In this document: piece by piece, positions 22,199 to 64,000 of the stretch
How positions within the stretch are numbered: position 1 is the first letter of the stretch
Layout: every line of letters begins with the position of its first letter
DNA from: Gemmatimonadota bacterium
GTDB lineage: Bacteria; Gemmatimonadota; Gemmatimonadetes; Longimicrobiales; Gaopeijiaceae
Reading direction: 5' to 3'
Length of the DNA: 64,000 nt
Assembly: GCA_028874905.1 (NCBI GenBank)
Contig: JAPPGZ010000087.1
Span: 13,223-77,222, forward strand
Translations under genes and position numbers: made by a program
Notes under the pieces: generated by a model
Database searches by the model: none
What the model saw: only the letters and a program-made list of their open reading frames with translations
Told to the model about the DNA's origin: nothing

Positions 22199-22213
22199 CT
22201 GGGAGGAGTCGGC

Positions 22214-45405: not shown

Positions 45406-45557
45406 CGGCAGGTCCACACCTTCGGCCGACTTGACCACCGACAATCAGCGTATCGCCGCCGGCTGCCGGGCGACAGGGCGTATAGCGCCAGTGCCGACTC
45501 GCGCCGTAACGTGTACCGGTGTGGCAATCCCCAACCTCGGAGTCAGGAGGTTCCCCG

Positions 45558-48044
45558 ATGACGGTCTCACGCCGCACCGCTCTCAAGATCGGCCTCGGAG
45601 CCGGCACGCTGCCCCTGCTGGGCTGCTCGCCAATCGGCACCGGATCGGGCGCTCGCACCGCTGCCCTGGCCGCCGCGGCAGGGCTCATCAACGCCCGTGC
45701 CCTCCCGCTCAGCGCAGTCCGCCTCACCGGCGGCCCTCTCAAGCACACCCAGGACCTCAACGGTCGCTATCTGCTCGACCTGGAACCCGACCGGATGCTC
45801 GCGTACTACCGCGACCGGGCCGGCCTCACGCCGAGGGGTGAGCCGTACGGCGGCTGGGACGGCGACGGACGCAACCTGACGGGCCACATCGCGGGTCACC
45901 ACCTCACCGCAGTGAGCCTCATGTGGGCCGCCACAGGCGACGAGCGCTACAGGGACCGCGCGGACTACCTGGTCACCGAGCTCGAAGAGGTGCAGGATGC
46001 CCACGGCGACGGCTACCTCAGCGCGCTGGCGGGCCTGCGGCGGGCCTTCGGGGAACTCGCCCGCGGCGAGATCCGTTCGGCGTCCTTCGACCTGAACGGC
46101 GAGTGGGCGCCCTGGTACACGCTGCACAAGACCTTCGGCGGCCTCCGCGACGCCTATCGCTTCACCGGCAACGAGACCGCACTCGAGATGGAGATCGCCT
46201 TCGCGACGTGGGCGGAAGGGATCCTCTCGGGCCTCTCCGACGCCCAGCTCCAGCACATGATGAACACCGAGTTTGGCGGCATGAACGAGATCATGGTCGA
46301 TCTCTTCGCCGACACCGGCGACGAGCGCTGGCTCGACCTCTCGTACAAGTTCGAGCACCGCGCCTTCATCGAACCCCTGCAACGGCACCAGGACATCCTT
46401 GCCGGCAAGCACGGGAACACCGCCGTGCCAAAGCTCATCGGCTCCGCGGACCGCTTTGCCTTGACGGGGAATCCCGCGGACCTGATCGGCGCGAGCTTCT
46501 TCTGGGACAGCGTGGTCCAGAACCACACCTTCTCGAGCGGCGGCCACGGCAAGGACGAGTACTTCGGCCCGCCCGGGCAGCTCAGCGATCGCATCGACGG
46601 GCGCACGGCCGAAACGTGCAACATCTACAACATGCTCAAGCTGACCCGGCAGCTCTTCTCGCTCCGGCCGGACCCGCACTACGCCGATTTCCACGAGCGT
46701 GCGCTCTTCAATCACATCCTGTCCTCGATCGACCCGGAGGACGGGCGTACCTGCTACATGGTGCCGGTGGGCCGCGGCGTGCAGCGCGAGTACCAGGACA
46801 TGCAGCGCAGCTTCACCTGCTGCGTGGGGTCGGGGATGGAGAGCCATGCGCTCCACGGGGACGGGCTCTACTACGAGGACGGCGACAGGCTGTGGGTGAA
46901 CCTCTACGCGCCTTCCACGGTGGATTGGGCCGACGCAGGAGTGCGGCTGGCCATGGAGACCGGGTTCCCGGAGGGCGAGACCGCGACGCTCCGCGTGGAG
47001 GCGCGGCAGCCGCGCGAGTTCACCCTGATGCTGCGGCAGCCTTTCTGGGCAGGCGACGGCTTCGCCGTGAGGGTCAACGGCGAGGTGGTGGCGCCCGCCG
47101 CACGCCCCGATGGCCTCGAATTCACCGGCCGCAGCCAGTACGGGCGGCTCCAGTACGATGCCAGCACGTTCAGGGAACTGAAGCGCACATGGCGAAGCGG
47201 CGACGTGGTGGAGGTCGACCTGCCCAAACCGCTCCGGCTGGAGGCGCTCCCGGACAACCCGCGCCGCGCGTCCATCATGTGGGGACCGATCGTGCTGGCC
47301 GGGGACCTGGGGCCGGAACGCGAACGCGGCGGCGAGGGTTCGGAGCGGCGTGAGCCGCCCAAGGTGCCGGTGATCGTTGCGGCCGAGGAGCCGGTGGCGT
47401 CGTGGGTGCGGGCGGTGGACGGAGCGGCGGGCCACTTCCGCACGGATGGCGTCGGCCGCGAGCCGGACGCCGCCGGACGGGCCACGGACGTCGACCTTCA
47501 CCCGTTCTTCCGCCTGCACCGGCGAACATACTCGACGTACTGGGATCTGTTCACACCGGACGAATGGGAGGAGCAGAAGGTCGAATACGCCGCCGAAGCG
47601 GAGCGCCTGAGAAGGCTGGAGGGGGCCACCGTGGCGTACCTGGAGCCCGGCGAGCGCGTCTTCGAGGACGCGTTCAACTACCAGGGCAGCGAGGACGCAG
47701 TGACGCAGCGCATGCTGGGCCGGCCGGGACGCAGGGGCGGGGGCTGGTTCTCTTTCGACATCCCGGTGGCGCCGGACCGTCCCATGACGCTTATTGCGAC
47801 GTACTATAGCGATGACCGCCGGGGCACACCGGCGTCGTTCGAGATCCTCGTGGACGGGACCAGGGTGGCCGAGCCCGAAATCGACCGCAGCGAGCCGCCG
47901 CGCTTCTACGACGTCGCGTATCCGCTGCCGGCCGGGGTGGCTGCGGGCAAGGAACAGGTGACCGTGCGTCTGCAGGCGAAGCCGGACAGCCAGATCGCGA
48001 CCGTCTTCGGGCTCAGGATGGTGCGCGCGGACGAACTGCGGTGA
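45558..48044 (+). CDS. GH146-like (DUF1680-related) beta-L-arabinofuranosidase
   Basis: 828 residues. AGGAGG is 7 bases before the ATG at 45558, which decides the start. A Tat/lipoprotein leader is visible ([20 protein letters not shown]). The barrel shows the longer GH146 style ([60 protein letters not shown]). The Glu-x-Cys site is E352-T-C354 in [19 protein letters not shown], and C421-C422 is in [14 protein letters not shown]. The C-terminal part ([20 protein letters not shown]) matches the DUF4986/DUF6805-like modules that follow GH146 domains. araA starts 22 bases downstream, linking L-arabinose release to its metabolism in one transcript. Confidence 0.9.
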
Positions 48045-48066
48045 AGGGCGCCAGGTACACAGCCGC

Positions 48067-49545
48067 GTGATCGACTACACGCCGCTCGAAGCCTGGTTCG
48101 TTACCGGCAGCCAGCACCTCTACGGGCCAGAGGCGCTGGAGCGCGTGCGGGCCAACTCGGAGGCGATCGTGGCGGGCCTCAACAGGTCCGGGACGCTGCC
48201 TGTGCGCGTCGTCTTCAAGGCGGTGGTGACGACGCCGGAGGAGGTCTCGGCGGCTCTGCGCGAGGCGGGCGCCGCGCCCAACTGCATCGGCGTCGTCGCG
48301 TGGATGCACACGTTCAGTCCGGGCAAGATGTGGATCGGCGGACTGAGCGGGCTCGCGAAGCCGCTCTGCCACCTGCACACCCAGATGGGTCGCGACATCC
48401 CCTGGTCCACCATCGACATGGACTTCATGAACCTGAACCAGTCGGCGCACGGGGGGCGCGAGTTCGGCTTCATCTGCACCAGGCTGGGCATCGAGCGGAA
48501 GGTGGTCGTCGGTCACTGGCAGGACGCAGCCGTGCAGGACGGGATGGCGACCTGGCTCCGGGCAGCGGCAGCGTGGCACGACAGCCAGGGCATGAGGATC
48601 GCGCGCATCGGCGACAACATGCGGCAGGTCGCGGTGACCGACGGCGACAAGGTGGAGGCCCAGCGCAGCTTCGGGTATGCGGTGGACGGGTACGGGCTCG
48701 GGGACCTCGTGGCGCACGTCGAGGCCGCGGGCGAGGCAGCCGTCGATGCGCTGTGCGGGGAATATGCCGACACCTACACGATGATGGAGTCGCTGCTGCC
48801 GGGCGGCGCGCGGCACCAGTCGTTGCGCGAGGCGGCGCGGATCGAACTGGGGCTGCGCTCCTTCCTGTCCGACGGCGGCTTCTACGCCTTCACCGACACC
48901 TTCGAGAACCTGCACGGCCTGCGCCAGCTCCCCGGCATCGCCGTCCAGCGCCTCATGGCCGACGGCTACGGGTTCGGCGCCGAGGGCGACTGGAAGCACG
49001 CCGCGCTGGTGCGGTCCATGAAGGTGATGGCACACGGCCTCCCGGGCGGCACCAGCTTCATGGAGGACTACACCTACCACCTCGACCCGGAAGGCCAGGC
49101 CGTACTGGGCGCCCACATGCTGGAGATCTGCCCGTCGATCGCCGCGGGGACGCCGTCGTGCGAGGTCCACCCGCTCGGGATCGGGGGCCGGGAGGACCCC
49201 GTACGGCTCGTGTTCGATGCGGCCGCCGGGCCGGCCGTGAACGTGACGGTGGTGGACCTGGGCGACCGCTTCCGGATGGTGGTCAGCGAGGTGGAGGTGA
49301 TCGAGCCGGTCGCACCGCTACCGAGGCTCCCGGTAGCGCGCGCGTTGTGGAAGCCGCGTCCGGATCTGGAAACCGCGGTCGCCACGTGGATCCACGCGGG
49401 CGGCGCGCATCACACGGGATTCTCGCGGGCGCTGATCGCGGAGCACTTGGAGGACTTCGCCGCGATGGCGGGACTGGAGTGCCTGTTCATCGATGGGGAG
49501 ACGGAACTGAGGAGGTTCAGGCGGGAGCTGCGGCGAGTGAATTAA
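48067..49545 (+). CDS. araA: L-arabinose isomerase
   Basis: 492 residues from a GTG start, the usual length. It converts L-arabinose to L-ribulose in the cytoplasm. The Mn-binding residues fall at the same numbers as in the Escherichia coli enzyme: E306 ([11 protein letters not shown]), E333 ([10 protein letters not shown]), H350 and the HH pair at 448-449 (GGAHHTGFS). Other signatures are [30 protein letters not shown] and [19 protein letters not shown]. It is preceded by the GH146-like gene and converges with the frameshifted GH127 gene. Confidence 0.98.
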
Positions 49546-49626
49546 GGACGTGGAAACCGACCTCGGTTCGCTCCGTTACGTCGCTTCAACGCTGCCGCGA
49601 TGGCGCACCATTGGCCATCCCGGGGG

Positions 49627-52100
49627 TCACCTCTCCTCGATCCACACCACCGACGTCACCGGGAACGGCTCGCCACGGCTCCCGTCCGCACGGGGCTCCG
49701 GTCGCCGGGGCCCGTAAGTACCGTCCACCCGGTTCTCCCGCGCGTAATTCGGAATCGCCAGCAGGGGCGAGCCGTCGGCGAAGGTACCGGTGATCACGGT
49801 CACGCCCCCCAGGAAATCCTCGCGCCATTCGGGCGTCAGACCGGCGTCCGGTGGCAGCGGCTGGCGAATGTCCTGATCCACCGCCTCGATGTTGTCACGA
49901 GGGGGCCGTACCTGAGCGCCACGCGCCCTCGGTTCGCCTCGATCCGCTCGTCGGCGTACACGCGCTGCACCTGCAGGGGGAGGACCAGGTCGATCCGGTC
50001 TCCGGCCTCCCAGGTGCGGTCGATCACCGCGTAGCCGTTTTCGACGAACGGATCGATGGGCGTCCCGTTGAGCCTGATGGAGGTGATGCCGTCCGCGTCG
50101 GGCGTGGCCCTGTACAGGTCGCTTACCATCCGGCCCGGCACCCGCACGCGCACGCTGAACCGCCTGCGTTCGGCGGGATTGACGATGATCGCCACCTTTT
50201 CGTCCGAAGGGTACTCGGTCTCCTGCACCACCTCCACATCGGCACCGGCCACGTCCTCCAGGGTCACGGTGCTGCCGATGAACAGGTTCACGTAGAGTCC
50301 CCGCGCGTCCTTCGCGTACATCCAGGTCGGCAGCATCAGGAGCGTCCGCGGGATGTTGCCCACACAGCAGGGGCAGGGGTGCCAGGCGTAGCGGGCGATC
50401 CGGTTGTCGAGCGGGTTGTCGTAGTAGTAGTGCCGGCCCTCAAGGTCGGTGGACCCCAGCAGGGCGTTGTACATCGTCTCCTCGATGAGGTCGGCGTACT
50501 GCGCGTCCCCGTAGAGACGGTTCATCTTCGACTGGAAGAAGAGCTCGCCGCAGCTGGCGCAGGACTCGCAGTAGGACATGTTCCGCAACGAGTAGTCGGG
50601 TCCGAAGCCCTCCGACGTCTCCCCGCTCCCCACCCCGCCCGTCACGTAGTACTTCCTGTGGACGATGCTGTCCCACAGCGAGCGGACCGCGCTCAGGTAG
50701 TCCACGTCACCCGTTTCGAGCGCCACGTCGGCCATGGCCGAATAGCCGTACACCGCGCGTACCGCGTGTCCGACGGCCTCGTACTGCTCCACCACGGGAA
50801 GGTGGCTCTGATCGTATTCCCCGCCCCCGCGGCGGCAGTCCAGGAGAAACTTCGCCAACTCCGAGTACCGGTCTCCACGCCCGTCCCCCTCGACCTCGTT
50901 GACGAAACGGCCGAAGCGTACCAGCGCCTGCTCCATCTCCTGGTGTCCGTCGAACCACTCCTGCTTCGGCGGGGGTCCGATTTGCTCGTACCACGTGTCG
51001 GCGAGTTGCACGGCCGCGTCATATAGTCGCGTGTCGCGTCCTTCGGTCATGACGTAGTGGTTGATGGCGGACTCGATGAAGTATCCGGCCACGTACCCTT
51101 CGTGATGACGCCTGCCTTCGGGTGTCCAGCGCTCGGCCCAACGATCGCGGTCGCGCAGGGTGAACGCGGTGTGCAGGTAGCCGTCGGGCTCCCGCGCCGC
51201 GAGGATCTTCGGGATCCAGTCCTCCAGCGTCGCCCTCATCTTGTCGTGGGCCGCGATGACTTCGGGATCGTCCCGGGGGTCGACCATGAGCGCAATACAC
51301 ATCGCCTCGACGGTCTGGTGCACCCAGGCGTTGGAGAAGACGTACCCCTTGTGGCTGCCGTGGGGCTCTCCCGCCAAGGCCCTGGCCGCCTCGATGAAGT
51401 TGTCGATCCCACCCGGGCCGAGTTCCAGGTCCGACCGGTTGATCTGGTCGATGCACCACGGGATCCAGTTGACCATGAGCGCTCTGGCCTTCCGGCCCCA
51501 CAGCCGGTCCGTGATGCGGTATCGCTTCGTGTGAACCGCCTCCAGCGGCAACCGCGATGGCGCCGCTTCGACCGTAACGTGGAATGACGACGTGACTTCT
51601 TCCTCGCCGTCCTTCGCAGTCAGCCTGAGCACATAGGCACCGGGCGCCGAAAAGGAGGCCGTGGTCACGACGGACGCGGGGTCGGCGAAGGCGACATCAC
51701 CCGGGCCCGACTCCTTCGACCAGTTCACGGCCACCTCTTGCTCCGGCTCGGGAGACGGCGGCTCGGGATCGCCCCAGCGCCGGCGCCGCCGCACCGGTGG
51801 CTCGCCATGCCCCGCCCATCCGTTGACGTAGGTCGCGCCAGGGAGCACGGTCACGCGATCGGGTCCGGCTGCCGCCATGAGGGGCTCGGGCGGCGAAACG
51901 GGCTCAGCCGGGAGGTTGTAGGGTGCTGCCGACGTTCCACGGACCGACGGCGGCAGCACAACGGTCGCGACTGCCGCCTTGCTCACGGTTTCCAGCACAT
52001 CGCGGCGAGTCATTTTATGGAGGCCCGTGCGGGGCCGGCTCATGTCCGGCCGGGTCTTGTCCGGCCGGGTCGCGTCGTGCCTTCCTGAGCCGTCGCTCAT
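49627..52100 (-). pseudogene. GH127 (DUF1680) enzyme gene interrupted by a one-base frameshift
   Basis: Frame one runs from the ATG at 52100 (GGAGG five bases upstream) to a stop at 49836; the true C-terminus continues in another frame to 49627. The break is at 49895/49896: the reading frame gives YGPLV then TTSRRW, whereas one extra T would give GPLVYNIEAVDQDIRQ, matching GPLVYCAEW and GPVVYCCEW in the two paralogues. Up to that point the enzyme is complete: a Tat-like leader, a Pro-rich and Ig/PKD-like domain (VNWSKESGPGDVAFADPA), and the catalytic barrel with E512-S-C514 (CESCASC) and C578-C579 (CPCCVGN). Either a recent mutation or a sequencing error; only about 90 C-terminal residues are affected. 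Confidence 0.85.
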
Positions 52101-52234
52101 GGGATCCTCCGGTGACCGCACGGAGTGGTAGCTTCCGCCAGGGGGAGCCTCTACTATGTCCCGGAGCATATTGAGGGCGGCAGAAACTGCCAGCAAGAGT
52201 GGCTCCTCGGAACCCTCGGAAAAGAGCGCTTCTC

Positions 52235-53434
52235 ATGGCCCTTGCAAGATCCGCGTCGACCAGACCGGCCGCGATCGCACTTACCGCCATCCTGCCCATC
52301 CTCGCCACCTGCGCACCCGACGACTCCCTCATGCCGCGAAGCATCGCCACCGTCCCGTTCGGCACGACCGCGACGGGCGAAGTCGTCGACCTCTTCACGA
52401 TGACCAACGCCAACGGCATCGAGGTGAGGGCCATCACCTACGGGGGGATCATCCTCTCGATCAAGACGCCGGACCGGGACGGACGCTGGGACGACATCGT
52501 CCTGGGCTTCGACTCCCTGGAACCCTACGAGGCGCGATCGCCCTACTTCGGCTCGATCATCGGGCGCTACGGCAACCGCATCGCCGGGGGACAGTTCACA
52601 CTGGACGGCGAGACCTTTGCGCTGGCGACCAACAACGGGCCGAATCACCTGCACGGCGGCGACGTCGGCTTCGACAAGGTGGTGTGGGCGGGCGAGGCCT
52701 TCGAACGCGAGGACGCGGTCGGGGTCGTCTTCACCTACACCAGCGCGGACGGCGAGGAGGGGTATCCGGGGACGCTGGACGTGCGCGTCACCTACACGCT
52801 CACGGACGCCGACGAACTGATCTTCGACTACCACGCGACCACCGACCGCGCGACGCCGGTCAACCTCACCCAGCACAGCTACTTCAACCTCGCCGGGGGC
52901 GCCAGCGACGACATCCTCGGGCACGAACTCACCCTCGACGCCAGTCGCTTCACCCCCGTCGACACGACGCTGATCCCCACCGGCGAGCTCGCGCCCGTCG
53001 GGGGCACGCCCTTCGACTTCCGCACCGCCACCGCCATCGGCGCGCGCATCAACGACGACCACCCGCAGCTCGCGGCCGGACTGGGCTACGACCACAACTT
53101 CGTGCTGGACGCGGACGACCCTGACGTAACGTCAGGGTTAACGGAAAACAACCGCGGGGGCCTGCATCGCGCGGCGTTCGTGCTGGAGCCGCTCACCGGT
53201 CGCACCCTGGAGATCCACACCGCGGAACCGGGGGTCCAGTTCTACTCGGGGAACTTCCTCGACGGCACGATCACCGGCAAAGCCGGCCGCGTCTACGGTC
53301 ACCGGAGCGGGTTCTGCCTGGAGACGCAGCACTTTCCGGACTCTCCCAACCAACCGGCCTTCCCCTCCACCATTCTCCGTCCCGGCGAGGCGTACAGCAC
53401 GCGCACCGTTCTGACCTTCGGGGTGGCGGGCTGA
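52235..53434 (+). CDS. Exported aldose 1-epimerase (galactose mutarotase family)
   Basis: 399 residues from the ATG at 52235; a GTG at 52199 is an in-frame alternative. Unlike cytoplasmic GalM it has a lipoprotein-type leader (AIALTAILPILATC), so it acts outside the inner membrane. Family blocks: NGIEVRAITYGGIILSI, FGSIIGRYGNRIAGGQFTL, NHLHGGDVGFDKVVW, the catalytic histidine H214 in LTQHSYFNLAG, GYDHNFVLD, and the catalytic glutamate E331 in TAEPGVQFYSGNFL. It probably interconverts anomers of released L-arabinose or related sugars before uptake by the symporter that starts 4 bases later. A palindrome at 53119-53137 adds a short in-frame insertion. Confidence 0.92.
   Translation: MALARSASTRPAAIALTAILPILATCAPDDSLMPRSIATVPFGTTATGEVVDLFTMTNANGIEVRAITYGGIILSIKTPDRDGRWDDIVLGFDSLEPYEARSPYFGSIIGRYGNRIAGGQFTLDGETFALATNNGPNHLHGGDVGFDKVVWAGEAFEREDAVGVVFTYTSADGEEGYPGTLDVRVTYTLTDADELIFDYHATTDRATPVNLTQHSYFNLAGGASDDILGHELTLDASRFTPVDTTLIPTGELAPVGGTPFDFRTATAIGARINDDHPQLAAGLGYDHNFVLDADDPDVTSGLTENNRGGLHRAAFVLEPLTGRTLEIHTAEPGVQFYSGNFLDGTITGKAGRVYGHRSGFCLETQHFPDSPNQPAFPSTILRPGEAYSTRTVLTFGVAG
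53119..53137. repeat. Perfect 19-bp palindrome inside the epimerase gene
   Basis: CCCTGACGT, one central A, then ACGTCAGGG. The segment and its flank are read in frame as DPDVTSGLTENN and use codons rare in this window (gta, tca, tta). GalM homologues normally have no such stretch between the DHNFVLD block and the next strand, so it looks like a small palindromic element inserted in frame. I found no second copy in this window. Confidence 0.6.
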
Positions 53435-53438
53435 CCCC

Positions 53439-55202: not shown

Positions 55203-55212
55203 GGTGCGGGTG

Positions 55213-56952
55213 ATGGCCGAGCGGGACGGCGGGCACGACCCCTCCGCGGACACATACGCCATCGGTCTCGACTACGGCACGAACTCGGTCCGGGCGGTGG
55301 TGGTCTCCTGCACGGACGGCCGCACCATCGGTACGCATGTCTTCGACTACCCGTCGGGGGAGCGCGGCGTGATCGTGGACGCGAGCGATCCGCATCTCGC
55401 CCGGCAGAACCCGGCGGATTACGTCGCCGGGCTTCGCGAGGCAACGCTGGGTGCGCTCGCGGAAGCCGAAGGAACTGCCGGCTTCTCGCGGGACCGGGTC
55501 ATTGGCATCGGTACAGACACGACCGGATCCACGCCAATTCCCGTGGACGCAGCGTGCCGCCCGCTTGCCCTGGACCCGAAATGGCGCAGCAACCCGGCAG
55601 CGCACGCCTGGCTGTGGAAGGACCACACCTCGGCCGGGGAGGCCGCCAACATCACCGAGGCCGCGTACGCGCACGCGCCCGAATACCTGGCGCCCATCGG
55701 CGGCACATACTCGTCCGAGTGGTTCTGGTCGAAGGTCTGGCACTGCCTGAACGTGGCGCCCGATGTCTTTGCGGCGGCCGCCAGCTGGGTGGAACTCGCC
55801 GACTTCGTGCCGGCAGTGCTCGCGGGCGCCTCCGACCCGCGCATCATTTTTCGTTGCGTGTGCGCCGCGGGGCACAAGGCGATGTACTCGCGGTCCTGGG
55901 GCGGCCTGCCTTCCGCGGAATTCCTCGGACGGCTCGATCCGCGGCTCGCGGGATTGCGCGACCGCCTCTACGACGTGGCGCATCCCCCCCACCGCCCGGC
56001 CGGCAGGCTCTCGGTGAAATGGGCCGAACAACTCGGTCTCCGCGCCGGGATCCCGATCGCGATGGGAGGTTTCGACGCCCATTACGGAGCGGTGGGAGCG
56101 GGGGTGGCGCCCGGCACCCTGGTCAAGATCATCGGGACATCGACCTGCGACATCACGATTGCGCCCAACAACGCGCCGCTCGGCGACGTTGCCGGCATAT
56201 GCGGGATCGTCGACGGCTCCGTCATGAACGGCTACTACGGCATCGAGGCCGGCCAGTCCGCCGTCGGCGATCTGCTTCACTGGTGGATCGATTCCGTCTG
56301 CGAAGGAGACGACACCCTGCACGCCACCCTGTCCGACGAGGCGGCGAAGCTCCGCCCGGGCGAGTCCGGCCTCCTCGCCCTCGACTGGAACAACGGGAAT
56401 CGCACGGTACTGGTCGACCCGCGCCTGACGGGCCTCGTCCTGGGACAGACGCTGGGAACCACGCGGGCCGAGATGTACCGCGCGCTCATCGAGTCGACCG
56501 CCTTCGGCGCGCGGGTGATCGTGGAGCGGCTCACGGACTGCGGCATTCCCATCGACCGGATCGTGTGCTGCGGAGGGATCGCGGCGAAGAACGACCTCTT
56601 CATGCAGATCTATGCCGACGTGCTGGGGCGGCCGATGCTCCTCGCGGGTTCCCGGCAGACGCCGGCGCTTGGCGCGGCCATCTCCGCAGCCGTCGCGGCT
56701 GGCCCGGACAACGGGGGATACGCAAGCTTCGAGGACGCCCAGGCACGGATGACGTCGCTCGGCGACGAGCGCTTCGACCCGGAGCCCGGCGCGCGCGCCA
56801 TCTACGACGAGCTCTACGCCATGTACCGTGAACTGCACGACTCGTTCGGCGGAGTCGACGCGGCCGCAGCCGATCTTGCCACCCTGATGAAACGGCTGCT
56901 GGGGCTGCGCGACCGCGTCGCGGTGGCCGGCGCGAGGGCAGGCACGCCATGA
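55213..56952 (+). CDS. araB: Ribulokinase
   Basis: 579 residues from the ATG at 55213; GTG codons at 55204 and 55210 are alternatives. It phosphorylates L-ribulose. FGGY-kinase blocks: AIGLDYGTNSVRAVVVSC, GIGTDTTGSTPIPVD, AHAWLWKDHTS, IIGTSTCDITIAP, GYYGIEAGQSAVGDLLHWW, LDWNNGNRTVLVDPRLTGLV and CCGGIAAKNDLFMQIYADVL. The SEWFWSKVWH and DWNNGNR patterns separate AraB from xylulokinase and glycerol kinase. It starts about 10 bases after the symporter stop and is followed by araD. Confidence 0.97.
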   Translation: MAERDGGHDPSADTYAIGLDYGTNSVRAVVVSCTDGRTIGTHVFDYPSGERGVIVDASDPHLARQNPADYVAGLREATLGALAEAEGTAGFSRDRVIGIGTDTTGSTPIPVDAACRPLALDPKWRSNPAAHAWLWKDHTSAGEAANITEAAYAHAPEYLAPIGGTYSSEWFWSKVWHCLNVAPDVFAAAASWVELADFVPAVLAGASDPRIIFRCVCAAGHKAMYSRSWGGLPSAEFLGRLDPRLAGLRDRLYDVAHPPHRPAGRLSVKWAEQLGLRAGIPIAMGGFDAHYGAVGAGVAPGTLVKIIGTSTCDITIAPNNAPLGDVAGICGIVDGSVMNGYYGIEAGQSAVGDLLHWWIDSVCEGDDTLHATLSDEAAKLRPGESGLLALDWNNGNRTVLVDPRLTGLVLGQTLGTTRAEMYRALIESTAFGARVIVERLTDCGIPIDRIVCCGGIAAKNDLFMQIYADVLGRPMLLAGSRQTPALGAAISAAVAAGPDNGGYASFEDAQARMTSLGDERFDPEPGARAIYDELYAMYRELHDSFGGVDAAAADLATLMKRLLGLRDRVAVAGARAGTP

Positions 56953-57016
56953 GTCGCGCCCCATGCCCCGCAAGCATCGCCGCCGTCGCACTCTCCGGCC
57001 GCTCCGGGAGCTGCTC

Positions 57017-57721
57017 GTGAGCCTGCGTGCGCGAGCGCTCCGGGAGTCCGCCTGGGCCGCCAACCTCGCACTCGCCGGCGGCGGCCTCGTCACCGGCACT
57101 TTCGGCAACGTGTCCGCGGCCGACCGCCGGGCCGGCCTCTTCGCGATCAAGCCCAGCGGGGTCCCCTATGCCGATCTGACCCCGGACCACATGGTGCTCG
57201 TCTCCCTGGACACCGGAGAGGTGGTCGAGGGCGATTTGCGCCCGTCGTCGGACACGCCCACGCACCTCGAACTCTACCGTGCGTTTCCCTGCGGCGGCGT
57301 GGCCCATACACACTCCGAGTTCGCGACCGCGCTGGCCCAGGCCAGACTCCCCGTGCGCTGCATGGGCACGACGCACGCGGACTTTTTCCGCGGCGATGTC
57401 CCGGTGACGAGAGAGCTGACCCGGGAGGAAGTCGCGGGCGAGTACGAGCGCAACACCGGGCTCGTCATCGTCGAGGCGTTCGCGGACGCCGGCATCTCGC
57501 CCGAAGAAGTGGCGGCCGTCCTGGTCGCGAATCACGGACCGTTCACGTGGGGCGCGGATGGCCATGAGGCCGTGACGCGCTCGGAGATGCTGGAAGTGCT
57601 CGCCCGCATGGAGTGCACGATCCTCGCGATCGCGCCCGACGCCCCGCGCCCCGCTCGCCACCTCGTCGACCGGCACTTTCTGCGAAAGCACGGCAGCGAC
57701 GCGTATTATGGGCAGGGCTGA
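57017..57721 (+). CDS. araD: L-ribulose-5-phosphate 4-epimerase
   Basis: 234 residues, close to 231 in Escherichia coli. I chose the GTG at 57017 because GGGAG lies 6-7 bases upstream and the protein then begins at the family-typical helix before ANLALAGGGLVTGTFGNVSA; the frame is open up to 56963, but that part is only Arg-rich. It converts L-ribulose 5-phosphate to D-xylulose 5-phosphate. The zinc ligands are H97 and H99 (VAHTHSEFAT) and H173 (NHGPFTWG). KPSGVPYADLTPDHMVLV and VRCMGTTHADFFRGDVPVT complete the fit. With araA and araB it gives a full L-arabinose pathway. Confidence 0.97.
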   Translation: MSLRARALRESAWAANLALAGGGLVTGTFGNVSAADRRAGLFAIKPSGVPYADLTPDHMVLVSLDTGEVVEGDLRPSSDTPTHLELYRAFPCGGVAHTHSEFATALAQARLPVRCMGTTHADFFRGDVPVTRELTREEVAGEYERNTGLVIVEAFADAGISPEEVAAVLVANHGPFTWGADGHEAVTRSEMLEVLARMECTILAIAPDAPRPARHLVDRHFLRKHGSDAYYGQG

Positions 57722-57823
57722 GGGCGTGTAGGCGGCGCCGGCCCGACGCAATGACCGCGCGTGCTGGTGGACGTGGATACCACGCCCCATGTTGTGGCGG
57801 GAGGACCTGACGGAGACTGGCCC

Positions 57824-60667
57824 ATGGCAGAGATTGGCGCGGCTCTCGATCGACGATCCGGCCCGCTTGGAGGGCGTCCGCGGCCCCGTGGCGGGTTGGC
57901 CCGCGTCCGGCTGCTCGCGATGGCCGCAATCGCGACTCTGCAATTCGCCTGCGCTCAGGAGCGCGGCGCCGTGGACCCCGTCCCCACCCTCGGGCTCGAA
58001 CAGGGATTGCAGGACCTCAAGGCGGGCCCGCTGCGCCTTGCCCTCGTACGCGCCTCACAGACACTGGCCGCTCTACGGCCCGAAGGTCACGGCGGGTTCG
58101 ATTTCACTCCGTCCGACTGGCTGGAGCGCCGCGCGGGTAACGAGTACTTCCACCTCGGCGACCTGACGCTGCGTCTGCGCTGGGAAGCGTCGGACGGCTG
58201 GAGGCACTACTCGACCGCCGAGGCGCGTCGCCCCGTCGCGAAGCTTCCCGCCCGGGAACCGGTCCTCGCCGCCGCCGACCTGGCCCCCACCCTCCCCACC
58301 GACATCCCGCTGCGCGTCCGTCGCCACTGGGAGTCTCGAGACGGCGGTCTCGCACTCCGCTTCGAACTGCACAACCCGGGCGCGGTTCCCGTGGAGATCG
58401 GGGCACTGGGCATCCCCATGGTCTTCAACAACATCCTGTCGGATCGGTCGCTCGACGAAGCGCACGCGGTGTCCTCGTTCTCCGACCCCTACATCGGACG
58501 GGACGCCGGGTACCTGCAGGTCACGCGTCTGAGCGGTCACGGGCCCGCCCTGCTCGTCGTGCCTCTAGGCGACACCCCGTTCGAAGCGTACAATCCGCTG
58601 CTGAGCGACCCGACCCCCCGCGGCGTCACCTTCGAGGGGTTCCACGAGTGGATGACACACAGCCTCGCCCACGCCGAGGACGAGTGGAGCGCTGCCGATC
58701 CGTGGAATCCGCCGACCTCGGCCACGCTGGCCCCGGGCGAAAGCCGTTCGTACGGCGTCGAGTTCCTCCTGGCCGAGGAGATCCGCGCAATCGAGTCCAC
58801 CCTGCTTGCGAGCCACCGGCCTGTCGCCGTGGGCATCCCCGGCTACGTGGTGCCGATGGACATCGAGGCCCGGCTGTTCCTCAGGCACACCGCCGGCGTG
58901 CAGTCGCTCGAGGTGGAGCCGCCCGGAGCGCTCACGATCACGCCCGCCGCAGAGGCGGTGGGGACGCGCGCAACGATCACCGCGGACCCGGCCGCGTCCG
59001 GCTGGCTCGCCTACGACGTGCGCGGACGCTCGTGGGGACGATCACGCCTCACCGTGACCTGGGAGGATGGTGTCACGCAGACCATCCACTACAAGGTCAT
59101 CAAGCCGGCCGCCGAGGTAGTCGCCGACCTGGGTCGCTTTCTGACCACCGAGCAGTGGTTCGAGACGCCCGACGATCCGTTCGGACGAAGCCCATCGGTC
59201 ATCAGCTACGACTACGACGAGCGCCGCCACGTGACCGAGGACAACAGAGCCTGGATCGCCGGCCTCGGGGACGAGGGCGGATCGGGCTCCTGGCTGGCCG
59301 CGATCATGAAGCAGCTCGTCCGGCCCGACTCCGCCGAGCTTGCCAAGATGCAGCGCTTCGTGGACGAGGTGGTGTGGGGCGGGCTGCAGTACGACGAGGG
59401 GGAACTCGCCTACGGCGTTCGCAAGAGCATGTTCTACTATGAGCCGGACGACATGCCCGAGGGCACCTACAGCGACGAGGTCCGCTACGGCGGCTGGTCG
59501 AGCTGGGACCGCGAGCACGCCATGACCGTCGTCCGCTCCTACAACTATCCCCACGTCGCCGCGCTGCACTGGGTCCTGTACCGGCTGGCCCGCAACCGGG
59601 AGGGTCTGGTCACCAGTCATCCCTGGGACTGGTACCTCGATCGCGCGTGGCGGACCGGTGTGGCGATGGCCGAGCACGCCCCGCGCTACGCCCAGTTCGG
59701 CCAGATGGACGGCACGGTCTTCCTCCTCATCCTGCTCGATCTGCAACGTGAGGGCTGGGCGGAGCAGGCCGCGGCGCTCGAAGAGACGATGCGCGCGCGC
59801 GCCGAAGTGTGGCGCTCTCTGGGCTATCCCTTCGGCAGCGAGATGCCGTGGGACTCGACCGGGCAGGAAGAGGTCTACGCGTGGTGCAGGTACTTCGGCT
59901 TCGACGAGAAGGCGCTCGTGACGCTGAACGCGATCCTCGGCTACATGCCGACGGTGCCGCACTGGGGATACAACGGGAGCGCGCGCAGATACTGGGACTT
60001 CATGTACGCGGGGAAGCTGCGCGGGGTCGAACGGCAACTCCACCACTACGGCTCGGCATTGAACGCGATTCCGGTGCTGTCGGAGTACCGAAGCCACCCC
60101 GACGACCTCCACCTGCTGCGCGTCGGACACGCCGGCATGATGGGCGCCATCGCCAACGTCACGCAGGACGGGTTCGGCCCCAGCGCCTTTCACGCCCATC
60201 CTTCGGCGCTCCGGATCGACGGGTACTCGGGCGACTACGGGCCCGGGTTCTTCGGGCACGCGGTGGGCACGGGCACCTATGTCGTGAACGACCCGGAGTT
60301 CGGCTGGCTGGCGTTCGGGGGGAATCTGAGGATGGCAGCGGGTGGCGCGGGCGTGGCCGCGGGCTTGGTTCACGTAACTCCCCTCGACGCCGCTCGTTCG
60401 CGGGTGTACCTGGCGCCGCTGGGTCTTTGGCTCACCCTCGACGCGGGCACCTTCGAGGCCGTCGAGATGTCTGGAGCGGTGATCCGGGTGACGCTCTCGC
60501 CAGCCACTGCCGCCGTTCGCAGCGCGCGCTTGCGCATTGAGCAGCCCGCCCCCGTCGAGGGGGTGGGCAGCATCGCGCCGATCGAGTCGTTTCAGATGGA
60601 GCGGGGCGCCTACGTGGTGCCGCTGGGCGAGGAGCCGGCCGTGGTCGTGCTGGGCACCCAACGATGA
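57824..60667 (+). CDS. Exported DUF5695-type protein, putative glycoside hydrolase-like
   Basis: 947 residues from the ATG at 57824 (GGAG 8 bases upstream); the signal core LLAMAAIATLQFAC with lipobox lies 30 residues in, so a later start such as the ATG at 57920 is possible. The N-terminal half is beta-rich (VRRHWESRDGGLALRFELHN, GALGIPMVFNNILSDRSL). The C-terminal half looks like an (alpha/alpha)6-type barrel rich in aromatic residues (GGWSSWDREHAMTVVRSYNY, PHVAALHWVLYRLARNREGL, MDGTVFLLILLDLQREGW, PHWGYNGSARRYWDFMYAG). This matches what I know as DUF5695. No catalytic residues are established for that family; a role in arabinan or glycoprotein attack is inferred from its place behind araD. 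Confidence 0.82.
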   Translation: MAEIGAALDRRSGPLGGRPRPRGGLARVRLLAMAAIATLQFACAQERGAVDPVPTLGLEQGLQDLKAGPLRLALVRASQTLAALRPEGHGGFDFTPSDWLERRAGNEYFHLGDLTLRLRWEASDGWRHYSTAEARRPVAKLPAREPVLAAADLAPTLPTDIPLRVRRHWESRDGGLALRFELHNPGAVPVEIGALGIPMVFNNILSDRSLDEAHAVSSFSDPYIGRDAGYLQVTRLSGHGPALLVVPLGDTPFEAYNPLLSDPTPRGVTFEGFHEWMTHSLAHAEDEWSAADPWNPPTSATLAPGESRSYGVEFLLAEEIRAIESTLLASHRPVAVGIPGYVVPMDIEARLFLRHTAGVQSLEVEPPGALTITPAAEAVGTRATITADPAASGWLAYDVRGRSWGRSRLTVTWEDGVTQTIHYKVIKPAAEVVADLGRFLTTEQWFETPDDPFGRSPSVISYDYDERRHVTEDNRAWIAGLGDEGGSGSWLAAIMKQLVRPDSAELAKMQRFVDEVVWGGLQYDEGELAYGVRKSMFYYEPDDMPEGTYSDEVRYGGWSSWDREHAMTVVRSYNYPHVAALHWVLYRLARNREGLVTSHPWDWYLDRAWRTGVAMAEHAPRYAQFGQMDGTVFLLILLDLQREGWAEQAAALEETMRARAEVWRSLGYPFGSEMPWDSTGQEEVYAWCRYFGFDEKALVTLNAILGYMPTVPHWGYNGSARRYWDFMYAGKLRGVERQLHHYGSALNAIPVLSEYRSHPDDLHLLRVGHAGMMGAIANVTQDGFGPSAFHAHPSALRIDGYSGDYGPGFFGHAVGTGTYVVNDPEFGWLAFGGNLRMAAGGAGVAAGLVHVTPLDAARSRVYLAPLGLWLTLDAGTFEAVEMSGAVIRVTLSPATAAVRSARLRIEQPAPVEGVGSIAPIESFQMERGAYVVPLGEEPAVVVLGTQR

Positions 60668-63567
60668 ACGTCGTAGCGGCGCTCACGCTTTCGCTCGCGG
60701 TCCAGGACTCCGGGTGCGTCCAGCCGCTCAGGACCCGCGCGCAGCTTGATTCCGCGGCCGCCGAGACCGAGCGCCTGGTCGAGGACCGGCCCGCGTCGCG
60801 GGAACTCCGTTGCCGAATGGCAGCGCTGCGAATGCAGGCGGGCCGCTACGAAGAGGCCGATTCGATCCTTGGGCAGCTGCTCGCCGACGATCCGCACCAA
60901 CTCGAACCCCTGCTCGCGCGGACGAGCCTCCGCCGCCGGCAGTACCGTTTCGGTGATGCGGCCCGGACCCTGGCACAGGCTGCCACGCTGGCCCCCGGAA
61001 GTTCCCGGGTCGTCGTGCTCGAGGGGCGGCTGGCCCTCGACAGGATGGATCTCATCGCCGCGGACACGATTTTCACGGGGCTGCTCGAGAGGGATCCGGA
61101 TTCGCCCGGAGCGATTCTGGGTTTGGCCGAGATCGCATTCTGGACCGACCGGCACGCGGACGCGCGGGAACTCCTGCAGCGGACGCTGACCCTGGATCCA
61201 TCCCTCGCCTCTGCCCACCTGCTGGCCGCGCGGATCCATCGCGAGGCCCAGGCCAACGCCGAGTGGAGAGCGTCGGTGCTTCAGGCAGTCGCCGTCGATT
61301 CGCTGTCCGCCAACGCACACGCCGCGCTGGCCTCCGTCCTCAGAAGCGACGGAGCACTCGAAAGCGCGTATCGGCACGCTCAACTGGCCATCGACCTCGA
61401 TCCGTTCTCACAAGGCGCCCACTCCTACCTCGGCAACGGCGGATCGCTCCTCGGCTACGACTCGGTGCCGGCGGATCCCGGCGAGTTCGACGGCCGGGTC
61501 GGCGAGCTCCTGGCCCTCGGCGACGAACTCCTCCTGGCCCGGCGGTATCGGGAGGCGTTGGCACCCTTCCACGAGGTCCTGGCCACCGATCCCGGGAACA
61601 CGGTCGCCCTCGTGGGCATCGGCACGACGCACTATCACCTGGGAGATTTCGAAACCGCGCTGGGCTGGTTCGAGAGAATTCTCGCCGATCATCCCGGATA
61701 CGGGCTCGCCCACTACGGCATCAGCTATGCGCTTCGCCGGATGCGGGACCGCGTGATCGTGGGGCTGGACGAGATGCGCGCGGTCTTCGAGCAGCGCGAT
61801 GCGCCGGAGCCGCCCGGTCTGCGGGAGGTCTTCCCGGACTACGAGCGTCTCGACGACGAACTCCGGAAGATCGTGCGCCTGTCCGTGGAGCCTTTCAGCA
61901 ACTACCTGCCGGCGCTGGCGGTCGGCGGCGCCACCTTCCATCTGCTCCCGTTTCACAAGCTGCTCTGGCAGTCGCCCCACAAGGAGCGCACCAGGGGGAC
62001 GCGGACCTTCGATCTGCGGCTGTGGGACGACGTCAAGGGGCAGGGCGGCTTTCACGCCGTCGGCGGGGAGGAATGGGTGCGTGACGTGCGCTACCAGCGC
62101 TGGAACGTCGTCACGCACGAGTTCACGCACCAGGTGCACGGCATGTTTCCCGACAGTCTCCGGGCCGAGGTCGCGCGGCTCTTCCAGACCGCGAAGGCGG
62201 AGCGGCGCACGCTCGACTACTACGCGGACTTCAACGAGATGGAGTACTTCGCGCAGGCGGCCGAGGCCGTGATCTCGGAGGTCAAGTTCAAGGATCAGAG
62301 GGGGACGTCGAAACACACGCGGGATCACCTGCGCGTAAGGGATCCCGCGCTCTTCGAATTCCTCGGCCGCATCAACCGACGCGACAGCTACCGGGATGTC
62401 GAGGTGCGCGCGGCCCGGCAGAAGGGAAACACACTGATCCGGGCCGGCGACCTGACCGGGACAGCCAGGGCGGCCAGGGAGGCGCTGAGCCGCTACGGCG
62501 ACCACCCCGGTCTCCTGGACCTGCTCGCACGCGCGCACCGGCTCCGGGGCAACTACGCCGAGGCGCGAAGTCTGCACCAGATGTCCGTCGAAGCCTTCCC
62601 GCAGGCCATTGCCGGCTACGCGGGACTGGCGGAGGACGTGGTTCTGGAGACGCGCGACCACCAGCGGGCCATCGGACTTCTCCGCGCCGTCGCCGAGCTT
62701 CATCCGGGCTCCGCCGAGCCGCTGCTGAGGCTCGCCGATGTCTACCATTTCGCCGGCAGGCTCGACAGCCTGGACCTGGCCCTCGACTCGGCGCTGGACA
62801 TCGAGGAGTCGCCCAACCCGTACGGCGGCATCGCGAACCCCTGGATTCTGAGAGCAGGCGGCAGAATGCTGAGGGAAGACTACGAGGGAGCCGAGCAGGC
62901 GCTCCGGCACACTCTGGAGAACATCAATCGCCGGGACCCATCGGCCTGGGCGGAGCTGGCGGTGGCGCAACTGCGAACGGGAAGGCCCGGCCCCGGACGC
63001 GAAGACCTCGCTACCGCGCAGCTAGTGGACGCGGACGACCCTCGCGTTTTGGAAGTACAATCGGAGTTCGCGGCGCACGATGGGGCCGCGGCGGACGCGC
63101 GGCGCCTGCTCGAACGGGTGCTCGACCTCGACGGTTCCCGGCTGAGCGCCATCGTGATGCTCAGCGAGTTGCTCGACGGCGTGGACGAAGACGCATCGCG
63201 CGCGCTCCTCGAGCGGGGGCTGAGAATGGTCCGGGAGCCGGCTCCGGTCGAGTTCGTCTTCCGAGGCGGCGAATTCGCGCCGATCGGCGCCTTCGGCGAG
63301 CCCACGGCGTCCCGGGTGCACACCCGTGCTGCCGTGCTTGCCGAACACGACGGCGACCTTGCCGGCGCGGTCGAGCATCACGAACTGGCGGTGGCGCGTT
63401 TCCGGTTCAACTTCCCGTCGCTTCTGGCCCTGGTCCGGCTTCACGCACGGGAGGGGCGTGTCGCGGACGCCCGCCGCCACTTCCGCGGACTGGAGACGGC
63501 CGGAGCCCCGGACCGCTACCTGTCGGAAGCGCGCGGCTTCCTGGACCTCGACAGATCACCGCGATGA
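60664..63567 (+). CDS. Exported TPR protein with a gluzincin-like metallopeptidase domain
   Basis: 967 residues. The ATG overlaps the preceding stop as ATGA. The N-terminus (NVVAALTLSLAVQDSG) may be a short signal. TPR-like repeats occupy about 25-360 (YEEADSILGQLLADDPHQLE, YREALAPFHEVLATDPGN) and 580-960. Between them is a zinc peptidase-like domain with the HExxH motif at H485-E-F-T-H489 (VVTHEFTHQVHG) and a probable third ligand at E527 in NEMEYFAQAAEAV, a gluzincin pattern. The active residues look intact. Coupling to the DUF5695 gene suggests that the two act on the same polymer, for instance a glycoprotein; that is inference. Confidence 0.82.
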   Translation: MNVVAALTLSLAVQDSGCVQPLRTRAQLDSAAAETERLVEDRPASRELRCRMAALRMQAGRYEEADSILGQLLADDPHQLEPLLARTSLRRRQYRFGDAARTLAQAATLAPGSSRVVVLEGRLALDRMDLIAADTIFTGLLERDPDSPGAILGLAEIAFWTDRHADARELLQRTLTLDPSLASAHLLAARIHREAQANAEWRASVLQAVAVDSLSANAHAALASVLRSDGALESAYRHAQLAIDLDPFSQGAHSYLGNGGSLLGYDSVPADPGEFDGRVGELLALGDELLLARRYREALAPFHEVLATDPGNTVALVGIGTTHYHLGDFETALGWFERILADHPGYGLAHYGISYALRRMRDRVIVGLDEMRAVFEQRDAPEPPGLREVFPDYERLDDELRKIVRLSVEPFSNYLPALAVGGATFHLLPFHKLLWQSPHKERTRGTRTFDLRLWDDVKGQGGFHAVGGEEWVRDVRYQRWNVVTHEFTHQVHGMFPDSLRAEVARLFQTAKAERRTLDYYADFNEMEYFAQAAEAVISEVKFKDQRGTSKHTRDHLRVRDPALFEFLGRINRRDSYRDVEVRAARQKGNTLIRAGDLTGTARAAREALSRYGDHPGLLDLLARAHRLRGNYAEARSLHQMSVEAFPQAIAGYAGLAEDVVLETRDHQRAIGLLRAVAELHPGSAEPLLRLADVYHFAGRLDSLDLALDSALDIEESPNPYGGIANPWILRAGGRMLREDYEGAEQALRHTLENINRRDPSAWAELAVAQLRTGRPGPGREDLATAQLVDADDPRVLEVQSEFAAHDGAAADARRLLERVLDLDGSRLSAIVMLSELLDGVDEDASRALLERGLRMVREPAPVEFVFRGGEFAPIGAFGEPTASRVHTRAAVLAEHDGDLAGAVEHHELAVARFRFNFPSLLALVRLHAREGRVADARRHFRGLETAGAPDRYLSEARGFLDLDRSPR

Positions 63568-63619
63568 GCCGGAGAGCCGGGGCAGCGGGGCCGGCCGAAG
63601 CCGGAGTCGGGTGGCACCC

Positions 63620-64000
63620 ATGCGCGTGACCGAAGTCATCCAGGCGGTGGACCTGCACGCGGACGGGGAGCCAGGACGGGTCATCGTCGGCGGCGTGCTC
63701 GACGTGCCCGGCGCTACCATGTTCGAGAAGATGCAGTACCTGCAGGCCCACATGGACCATTTGCGCAAGCGCATGCTTCGCGAGCCGCGGGGATACCCGG
63801 CGGCCAACTGCAACCTGATCCTGCCGCCGACGCGCCCCGAAGCGGATGCCGGTTTCGTCATCATGGAGCAGACCGAGTATCCCCCGATGTCGGGCACGAA
63901 CACGATCTGCGTGGCGACCGCACTCATCGAGACGGGCATGGTGAGGGTGGAGGAACCGCAGACCTCGCTCGTCCTGGAGGCGCCCGCCGGGCTGATCCGG
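63620..64000 (+). CDS. Proline racemase-family protein, 5' part only (proline/hydroxyproline racemase, epimerase or dehydratase)
   Basis: 127 residues are visible before the window ends. The start RVTEVIQAVDLHADGEPGRV and the conserved GATMFEKMQYLQAHMDHLRK, then LREPRGYPAANCNLILPP are typical of the family. The first catalytic position lies in PPMSGTNTICVATALIETGM, where S91 replaces the usual Cys of MCGH-type racemases. Ser at this place occurs in subgroups acting on hydroxyproline isomers, so the substrate may be 3- or 4-hydroxyproline rather than proline. It lies 52 bases after the TPR-peptidase gene. The second catalytic residue is beyond the window. Confidence 0.88.
   Translation, partial: MRVTEVIQAVDLHADGEPGRVIVGGVLDVPGATMFEKMQYLQAHMDHLRKRMLREPRGYPAANCNLILPPTRPEADAGFVIMEQTEYPPMSGTNTICVATALIETGMVRVEEPQTSLVLEAPAGLIR

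What the first reader, a model, noticed from the sequence alone, without database searches (positions are those of the whole stretch)
45558..64000. Possible locus for sulfated, beta-L-arabinosylated hydroxyproline-rich glycoprotein
Enzymes for beta-L-arabinofuranose (GH146 plus GH127 paralogues), an epimerase, a symporter and araABD are followed by a DUF5695 protein, a TPR-metallopeptidase and a proline-racemase-family gene with a Ser at the first catalytic position. In plants and green algae beta-L-arabinofuranose is linked to hydroxyproline in extensin-type glycoproteins, and some algal versions are sulfated. Sugar, sulfate, peptide and hydroxyproline steps would then all lie in one place. 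No alpha-L-arabinofuranosidase family (GH43, GH51, GH62) or endo-arabinanase is seen, which argues against ordinary arabinan. The combination is inference.
Basis: partly seen in the sequence, partly recalled or inferred. Interest (0 to 1): 0.75.

Follow-up and report, generated by a model that had tools for sequence, protein, structure and literature searches.

The report
Gene locus for arabinosylated hydroxyproline glycoproteins
An uncultured Gemmatimonadota bacterium carries a gene set that probably strips arabinose from hydroxyproline-rich glycoproteins and uses the sugar and, less certainly, the hydroxyproline; related operons in other bacteria join the same steps and include an enzyme family of unknown function.

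Summary
In detail: GH146, GH127 paralogues, araA/araB/araD, mutarotase, symporter, DUF5695, a TPR protein with HEFTH, and a proline-racemase-superfamily (PRS) gene are there. The complete PRS has a Ser/Cys pair. Comparison rescues the idea. In 37 of 70 DUF5695 loci outside Gemmatimonadota a Hyp epimerase gene lies within 25 kb. In Flavobacterium the order is DHDPS, ALDH, Hyp epimerase, amino-acid oxidase, permease, DPP4-like peptidase, LamG-GH127/146, DUF885, DUF5695. A 73% identical relative of the window's PRS in Gemmatirosa lies between Hyp-type genes and araB-araD. The genome assembly has no GH43 or GH51 hit. I judge the right half of the locus to act on arabinosylated Hyp-rich glycoprotein (0.58). 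Against: one of seven genus loci lacks the PRS, 27 other Gemmatimonadota PRS relatives show no such context, no close HypD/HypS is in the genome, and sulfatases are optional. DUF5695's predicted fold resembles PL27, a lyase of arabinogalactan-protein breakdown. The sulfated part is unproven.

The parts
29072..31615 (+). GH127a (left module)
   Evidence: Pfam PF07944 238 bits; best solved relative 6EX6, 463 bits; ETC and CC motifs
31620..33983 (+). GH127b (left module)
   Evidence: Pfam 167 bits; 6EX6 354 bits; motifs kept
33991..35700 (+). Sulfatase A (left module)
   Evidence: PF00884 212 bits; CCPSR
35712..37943 (-). GH31 glycosidase (left module)
   Evidence: Pfam
42269..43816 (-). Sulfatase B
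   Evidence: PF00884 162 bits; CNPSR
43813..45444 (-). Sulfatase C (start uncertain)
   Evidence: PF00884 166 bits; CIPAR
45558..48044 (+). GH146 beta-L-arabinofuranosidase-type protein with DUF6805
48067..49545 (+). araA, L-arabinose isomerase
   Evidence: NCBIfam PRK02929 782 bits against 622
49836..51878 (-). GH127c, accessory: not found in the G016, G001 and G013 stretches
52235..53434 (+). aldose 1-epimerase (mutarotase)
   Evidence: Pfam 306 bits; PRK11055 305 bits against 240
53439..55202 (+). sodium:solute symporter, presumed L-arabinose uptake
   Evidence: Pfam 267 bits; substrate inferred from position
55213..56952 (+). araB, ribulokinase
   Evidence: PRK04123 624 bits against 428; below TIGR01234 cut-off
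56963..57721 (+). araD, L-ribulose-5-phosphate 4-epimerase
   Evidence: PRK08193 303 bits against 257; below TIGR00760 cut-off
57920..60667 (+). DUF5695a, predicted PL27-like fold
   Evidence: Pfam 1255 bits; model pLDDT 84.5; Foldseek 5NOK E 2.4e-26
60664..63567 (+). TPR protein with HEFTH zinc-site motif, presumed peptidase
   Evidence: no peptidase family matched
63620..64000 (+). PRS, Ser/Cys type; runs on to 64693. Beyond the window: DUF5695b 64924-67680+, cyclophilin 67677-68402+, HEFAH protein 68473-69438-, SusD 74097-75587-, SusC 75619-78861-

Best explanation
The right half of the locus (GH146 to SusC, 45558 to about 78861 on the window's scale) is a utilisation locus for arabinosylated hydroxyproline-rich glycoprotein, extensin-type arabinosides first, Hyp-linked arabinogalactan second. 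SusC/SusD capture glycopeptide. GH146 and GH127 enzymes remove beta-L-arabinofuranose with a zinc-bound cysteine nucleophile. DUF5695a and b remove a further part of the glycan. The HEFTH and HEFAH proteins and the cyclophilin act on the Pro/Hyp-rich peptide. Mutarotase, symporter and AraA, AraB, AraD take L-arabinose to D-xylulose 5-phosphate. The PRS enzyme starts hydroxyproline use by epimerisation or dehydration. The left module (GH127a/b, three sulfatases) adds sulfated substrates. Shown: genes, motifs, cross-phylum synteny, predicted fold. Inferred: substrate, DUF5695 reaction, peptidase activity, and the Hyp steps after the PRS.
For: GH146 matches BtGH146 (474 bits) and keeps its motif; characterised GH146 enzymes Bll4HypBA1 and XeHypBA1 cut Araf-beta1-Hyp (PMC10850190, passages). 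No GH43 or GH51 in the assembly. DUF5695a orthologues in 70 loci outside Gemmatimonadota: 54 have a GH127/146-family gene, 44 a DPP4-like, DUF885 or M24 gene, 26 at least one Hyp-type gene, 24 both Hyp-type and GH127/146. Hyp epimerase within 25 kb on the same contig in 37 of 70, in 10 genus-level groups. Flavobacterium operon with Hyp pathway, permease, DPP4-like, GH127/146, DUF885, DUF5695 on one strand. Gemmatirosa: M24 peptidase, ALDH, second PRS, DAO, DHDPS, the PRS relative, araB, araD. Peteryoungia: DHDPS, ALDH, FAD oxidoreductase, PRS. Ser/Cys is the pair of a cluster assayed as 4HypE (PMC4113996, passages).
Against: G001 (closed chromosome) has the block without the PRS. Of 27 further Gemmatimonadota with a 62-74% relative, none has araABD, DUF5695, DAO, DHDPS or ALDH hits beside it; one has a GH127/146-family gene (39%), one an M24 gene, one an OCD gene, one a DPP4-like gene (26%). 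L053-L055, other Gemmatimonadota with GH146 beside DUF5695a, have no PRS in the flanks. The Gemmatirosa stretch (about 65 kb) has no DUF5695 and no GH127/146 hit. No close HypD or HypS in the genome; the PRS passes no NCBIfam cut-off. 33 of 70 outside loci have no epimerase shown within 25 kb (8 of them are short contigs). 13 of 22 genus mates searched have no DUF5695 hit.
Confidence: 0.58

Rival explanations
1. Arabinose locus plus bystander: the GH146-ara-DUF5695 block serves a beta-L-arabinose glycan without protein, and the PRS handles free hydroxyproline or proline from other sources, such as collagen of a presumed sponge host.
For: The block exists without the PRS in G001 and GH146 sits by DUF5695a without a PRS in the L053-L055 flanks; the PRS has relatives in unrelated contexts in 27 Gemmatimonadota.
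Against: Six of seven genus loci place the PRS between TPR protein and second DUF5695 or beside the block; Bacteroidota recruited a different, Cys/Cys, epimerase to the same context; PMC8163846 reports that no collagenase genes were found in sponge MAGs (passage).
Confidence: 0.22
2. The target is a plant-type polysaccharide or arabinogalactan tip with terminal beta-L-arabinofuranose (RG-II, RG-I arabinan, arabinogalactan), not the Hyp-linked arabinoside.
For: BT0349 lies in an RG-I locus and Bll3HypBA1 acts on AGP and arabinan tips (PMC10850190, passages); GH127c has a sub-threshold match to aceric acid hydrolase (238 bits against 950); DUF5695 resembles PL27, which works on gum arabic.
Against: No GH43 or GH51 in the assembly; the outside DUF5695 operons carry Hyp and peptidase genes. 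An AGP target would still be Hyp-linked.
Confidence: 0.13
3. The locus, at least its left module, degrades a carrageenan-like sulfated galactan, with GH127 as anhydrogalactosidase.
For: The Zobellia carrageenan cluster also has three GH127 and three S1 sulfatases (PMC5698469, passages).
Against: araABD, GH146 and DUF5695 do not fit; no GH16, GH82 or GH129 among the proteins scanned, though not every gene was scanned and no DagA sequence was at hand.
Confidence: 0.07

Closest known systems
Bifidobacterium longum arabinoside system (HypBA1 GH127, HypBA2 GH121, HypAA GH43; GH146 Bll4HypBA1)
   Same: GH127 and GH146 beta-L-arabinofuranosidases; proposed target Ara-Hyp of plant glycoproteins (PMC7263609, PMC10850190, passages)
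   Different: Here no GH43 in the assembly and no real GH121 match; DUF5695, SusC/SusD, sulfatases and a PRS are present; the passages read describe no Hyp catabolism or peptidase genes
Hydroxyproline catabolic operons with PRS enzymes (PMC4113996, passages)
   Same: PRS, DAAO, DHDPS and ALDH families, fully joined in the Bacteroidota relatives and Gemmatirosa
   Different: In the window only the PRS is present; in the Bacteroidota operons they are joined to arabinosidases and DUF5695
Zobellia carrageenan cluster (PMC5698469, passages)
   Same: Three GH127 and three S1 sulfatases
   Different: araABD, GH146 and DUF5695 here
PL27 L-rhamnose-alpha-1,4-D-glucuronate lyase BACCELL_00875
   Same: Predicted fold of DUF5695a (Foldseek E 2.4e-26): beta-sandwich and (alpha/alpha)6 barrel (PMC8377490, passage)
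   Different: 14% identity; a profile of 52 DUF5695 proteins finds no PDB sequence at E up to 10
Extensin use proposed for Latescibacteria (PMC4454575) and sponge MAGs (PMC8163846)
   Same: GH127 read as acting on Hyp-linked arabinose of algal extensins
   Different: The passages argue from gene inventories and mention neither a Hyp operon nor DUF5695

Membership tests
GH146 (gene 45558-48044) | sequence similarity to a characterised member | tested here: met
   5OPJ 474 bits over 752 residues
GH146 (gene 45558-48044) | zinc and cysteine-nucleophile motif | tested here: met
   ETC at 352, CC at 421, aligned with those of 5OPJ
GH146 (gene 45558-48044) | beta-L-arabinofuranosidase activity | not testable with these tools
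   needs purified enzyme
Hydroxyproline PRS enzyme (4HypE or t3HypD) | PF05544 fold family | tested here: met
   406.7 bits against 27
Hydroxyproline PRS enzyme (4HypE or t3HypD) | catalytic pair of a characterised Hyp subgroup | tested here: met
   Ser/Cys, as in the assayed cluster 9 of PMC4113996 (passages)
Hydroxyproline PRS enzyme (4HypE or t3HypD) | NCBIfam equivalog cut-offs | tested here: not met
   363.9 against 550 (t3HypD), 274.8 against 376 (4HypE), 325.7 against 556 (ProR)
Hydroxyproline PRS enzyme (4HypE or t3HypD) | Hyp pathway neighbours | tested here: inconclusive
   absent here; present for Gemmatirosa and Peteryoungia relatives; not seen for 27 others
B. longum Hyp-arabinoside system | GH121 and GH43 partners | tested here: not met
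   GH43 absent from the assembly; only a 26-bit match of 63 residues to HypBA2; no genome-wide GH121 search
SusC/SusD-type utilisation locus | SusC/SusD pair beside glycosidases | tested here: met
   SusD and SusC 74097-78861, same place in G016, G017, G005, G001
Carrageenan locus | GH127 plus S1 sulfatases | tested here: met
Carrageenan locus | GH129-like DagB, carrageenases, anhydrogalactose (dau) genes | tested here: inconclusive
   no such family among the locus proteins scanned; no genome-wide search
PL27 (DUF5695a) | fold | tested here: met
   TM 0.77-0.78 by target length
PL27 (DUF5695a) | sequence similarity | tested here: not met
   0 PDB sequences at E up to 10
PL27 (DUF5695a) | catalytic residues and lyase activity | not tested
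   no residue-level superposition was made

The most novel reading that the evidence does not exclude
DUF5695 is a new carbohydrate-active enzyme family, PL27-like in fold, that acts on the Hyp-linked glycan of hydroxyproline-rich glycoproteins (the arabinoside core or its cap) and takes the place of GH121 in Bacteroidota and Gemmatimonadota; its operons carry one substrate all the way, with sugar, peptide and hydroxyproline steps encoded together.
Probability: 0.35. Interest if true: 0.75.

Novelty: new variant of a known kind. Interest (0 to 1): 0.6.

Why it matters
Hydroxyproline-rich glycoproteins are major wall proteins of plants and green algae, yet the described bacterial system (Bifidobacterium) stops at the sugar in the passages I read. 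Operons that also encode peptidases and the hydroxyproline pathway would make growth on the whole glycoprotein directly testable in cultured Flavobacterium and Allomuricauda strains. They also give a specific substrate hypothesis for DUF5695; the one held paper that names it only lists it in a table about fungal velvet proteins. For Gemmatimonadota of this genus it would name a glycoprotein as a food source.

Tried and rejected
Local proof of a Hyp pathway after 64000: rejected; none among the proteins scanned. Second PRS of the genome (C49) as part of a Hyp operon: rejected; Cys/Thr type, next to a symporter, an S58 peptidase and sugar-type genes. DAO at C61 as D-Hyp oxidase: unsupported; 31% identity, no HypD/HypS hit beside it, and 23 of 23 genomes searched have some hit at E 0.001 or better, many weak. 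Pyr2C reductase families as a sign of a trans-3-Hyp route: OCD in 10 of 10 genomes. Ldh_2 in 7 of 10, and these are exactly the seven with the ara block, but one of them (G001) lacks the window-type PRS, and in G000 the gene lies on another contig (C79) without PRS or ara genes recognised by eye in the ORFs listed; so a weak hint only. Structure of DUF5695b: model too poor (pLDDT 43, 6 sequences), not used. Window-type PRS with ara or Hyp genes across Gemmatimonadota: tested and not general. PRS tree: long branches; used only to say that window and Bacteroidota enzymes lie far apart.

Labels not from a profile search: 'AraC-type' for the regulator beside the Bacteroidota operons (cluster 16) is my reading by eye. 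Cluster names rest on one representative scanned per cluster or on tblastn against window proteins.

Dropped rows: tblastn pieces under 80 aa or 90 aa and overlapping weaker hits; the 10 Gemmatimonadota loci L046-L055 were left out of the clustering of 70. The tool kept only the best 80 of 171 DUF5695 loci. Alignment A1 used 52 sequences: the window, L047 and 50 of the 68 listed. Seven of the 27 PRS stretches were cut by contig ends to 15 kb or less.
Full report
What is there. The window lies in contig C68 (105,988 bases) of a 4.05 Mb assembly, 94.8% complete. The nearest named records are Gemmatimonadota MAGs; from names such as RHO3_bin_72, SB0672_bin_21 and bin94 I recall several as sponge-derived, which no call shows. 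Past 64000 the contig continues with the rest of the PRS (to 64693), a second DUF5695 (64924-67680), a cyclophilin (67677-68402), a protein with VHEFAHAIHS and no Pfam family (68473-69438, minus strand), an ASPIC/UnbV protein, SusD and SusC (74097-78861, minus strand). To the left are two GH127 genes, three sulfatases, a GH31 and an amidohydrolase.

Sugar side. The 45558 gene is GH146: 474 bits to 5OPJ. The three GH127 proteins are nearest 6EX6; I recall that entry as BT3674 of an arabinogalactan locus, which no call shows. All four keep the motif of zinc ligands and nucleophile (role: PMC10728902, passages). AraA, AraB and AraD each pass at least one NCBIfam model; AraB and AraD fall short of others. 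The assembly has no GH43 and no GH51 C-terminal domain hit, so alpha-arabinan is an unlikely target.

Conservation in the genus. DUF5695 was found in 11 of 40 genomes: the own genome, 9 of 22 genus mates and one of the same order. I laid out the nine genus mates. In six of them and the window the araB-araD-DUF5695a block is present. The PRS follows the TPR gene in six of these seven (window, G016, G019, G005, G017, G013) and is missing in the single-contig genome G001, where only a 33% PRS lies elsewhere. G011 has the DUF5695 genes with other neighbours; G004 and G007 are on short contigs. G013 has the right module without the sulfatases, so the sulfate step is optional.

Cross-phylum test. 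DUF5695a orthologues at 52-63% identity (best segment) came from 70 loci outside Gemmatimonadota: 69 Bacteroidota and one Blastocatellia by record title. In 54 of 70 a GH127/146-family gene is in the locus; in 44 a DPP4-like, DUF885 or M24 gene; in 12 an araA, araB or araD gene; in 26 at least one of DAO, Hyp epimerase, DHDPS or ALDH; 24 of those 26 also have the GH127/146 gene. One representative per family was named; the epimerase of L106 passes PRK13971 (588 bits against 376). The set matches the trans-4-Hyp pathway of PMC4113996 (passages). Extending 20 loci showed that in Flavobacterium the pathway lies just outside the first flank: DHDPS, ALDH, epimerase, DAO, permease, DPP4-like, LamG-GH127/146, DUF885, DUF5695, mostly followed by GH42, one strand and gaps of 3 to 512 bases in F. 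pectinovorum, with GH43, M24, GH36 and DUF6055 genes further on in most. In all, 37 of 70 have the epimerase within 25 kb on the same contig: 18 inside the first flank, 18 by extension (contig lengths agree; gaps 10-21 kb) and L089 (22.7 kb). For one gene placed at random in a 5 Mb genome I would expect about 1%. The 37 are not independent (14 Flavobacterium, 13 of the Muricauda group) but span 10 genus-level groups. Of the other 33, eight are short contigs; the rest have the gene farther off, on another contig, or without a hit (41 of 47 genomes sent have a match, six none).

The window's PRS. It has a Ser/Cys pair, unlike the Cys/Cys Bacteroidota enzymes aligned and the Cys/Thr paralogue in its own genome. 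PMC4113996 reports 4HypE activity for a Ser/Cys cluster. Relatives on plasmids: Gemmatirosa kalamazoonensis (73%), flanked by M24, ALDH, second PRS, DAO and DHDPS genes on one side and, after one unassigned ORF, araB-araD on the other; Peteryoungia (60%), after DHDPS, ALDH and FAD oxidoreductase genes; Rhizobium (about 61%) beside an Ldh-type gene and a GntR regulator. Against this, the Gemmatirosa stretch has no DUF5695 or GH127/146 hit. Of 298 Gemmatimonadota genomes, 32 have a close relative: four in the genus, Gemmatirosa (G155, same coordinates), and 27 others. Of these 27 stretches none shows DAO, DHDPS, ALDH, araABD or DUF5695 hits; one has a GH127/146-family gene, one an M24, one an OCD, one a weak DPP4-like gene, six a distant symporter. 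So the gene's place here is a genus-level association, and its Hyp reading rests on kinship, the catalytic pair and the contexts of some relatives.

DUF5695. The AlphaFold model is good (pLDDT 84.5, pTM 0.89). The best solved fold is the PL27 lyase BACCELL_00875 (E 2.4e-26, TM 0.77-0.78 by target, 14% identity), without detectable sequence similarity. PL27 releases rhamnose from gum arabic by beta-elimination (PMC8377490, passage). The fold points to the same class of substrate but does not decide between lyase and hydrolase; GH94 phosphorylases also match, weakly. No residue-level comparison was made.

Literature. Six searches listed no paper whose title or abstract start describes a DUF5695 or hydroxyproline operon with GH146; the library holds only open-licence papers. 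Extensin as a GH127 substrate has been proposed for Latescibacteria (PMC4454575) and for sponge MAGs (PMC8163846, which also names coral mucus and carrageenan); I read passages of both.

Verdict. Observation confirmed; interpretation partly supported. The protein-glycan reading has gained independent support from other phyla; its local hydroxyproline and sulfate parts have not.

Noticed in passing
window 17667-25690, 39855-42212; beyond the window 69739-73002: Multihaem-cytochrome/TPR proteins and ASPIC/UnbV FG-GAP proteins flank both ends of the locus and recur in genus mates; role unknown.
   Followed up: partly
L006 (own genome, C49), 9945-10955: Second PRS, Cys/Thr type, beside a symporter, S58 peptidase, GFO/IDH/MocA, AP_endonuc_2 and 3-keto-disaccharide hydrolase genes and two M66-like peptidases.
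   Followed up: partly
beyond the window 68473-69438 (L003:8696-9661): HEFAH protein without Pfam family; relatives lie near DUF5695 in Bacteroidota (14 of 80 loci by tblastn including genus mates).
   Followed up: partly
L177 (Sinomicrobium, another contig than its DUF5695 locus): LamG-GH127/146, DPP4-like, DAO, Hyp epimerase, ALDH and DHDPS genes beside a SusC/SusD-like pair, without DUF5695 in the stretch held.
   Followed up: no
L088:20751-22586, L090:12602-13993: DUF6055 proteins recur in the Bacteroidota DUF5695 loci (clusters 13 and 14, 13 and 11 of 70 loci); function unknown.
   Followed up: no
G000:C79:31307-32275 and genus mates: An Ldh_2-family gene occurs in the seven genomes with the ara block and in none of the three without.
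   Followed up: partly
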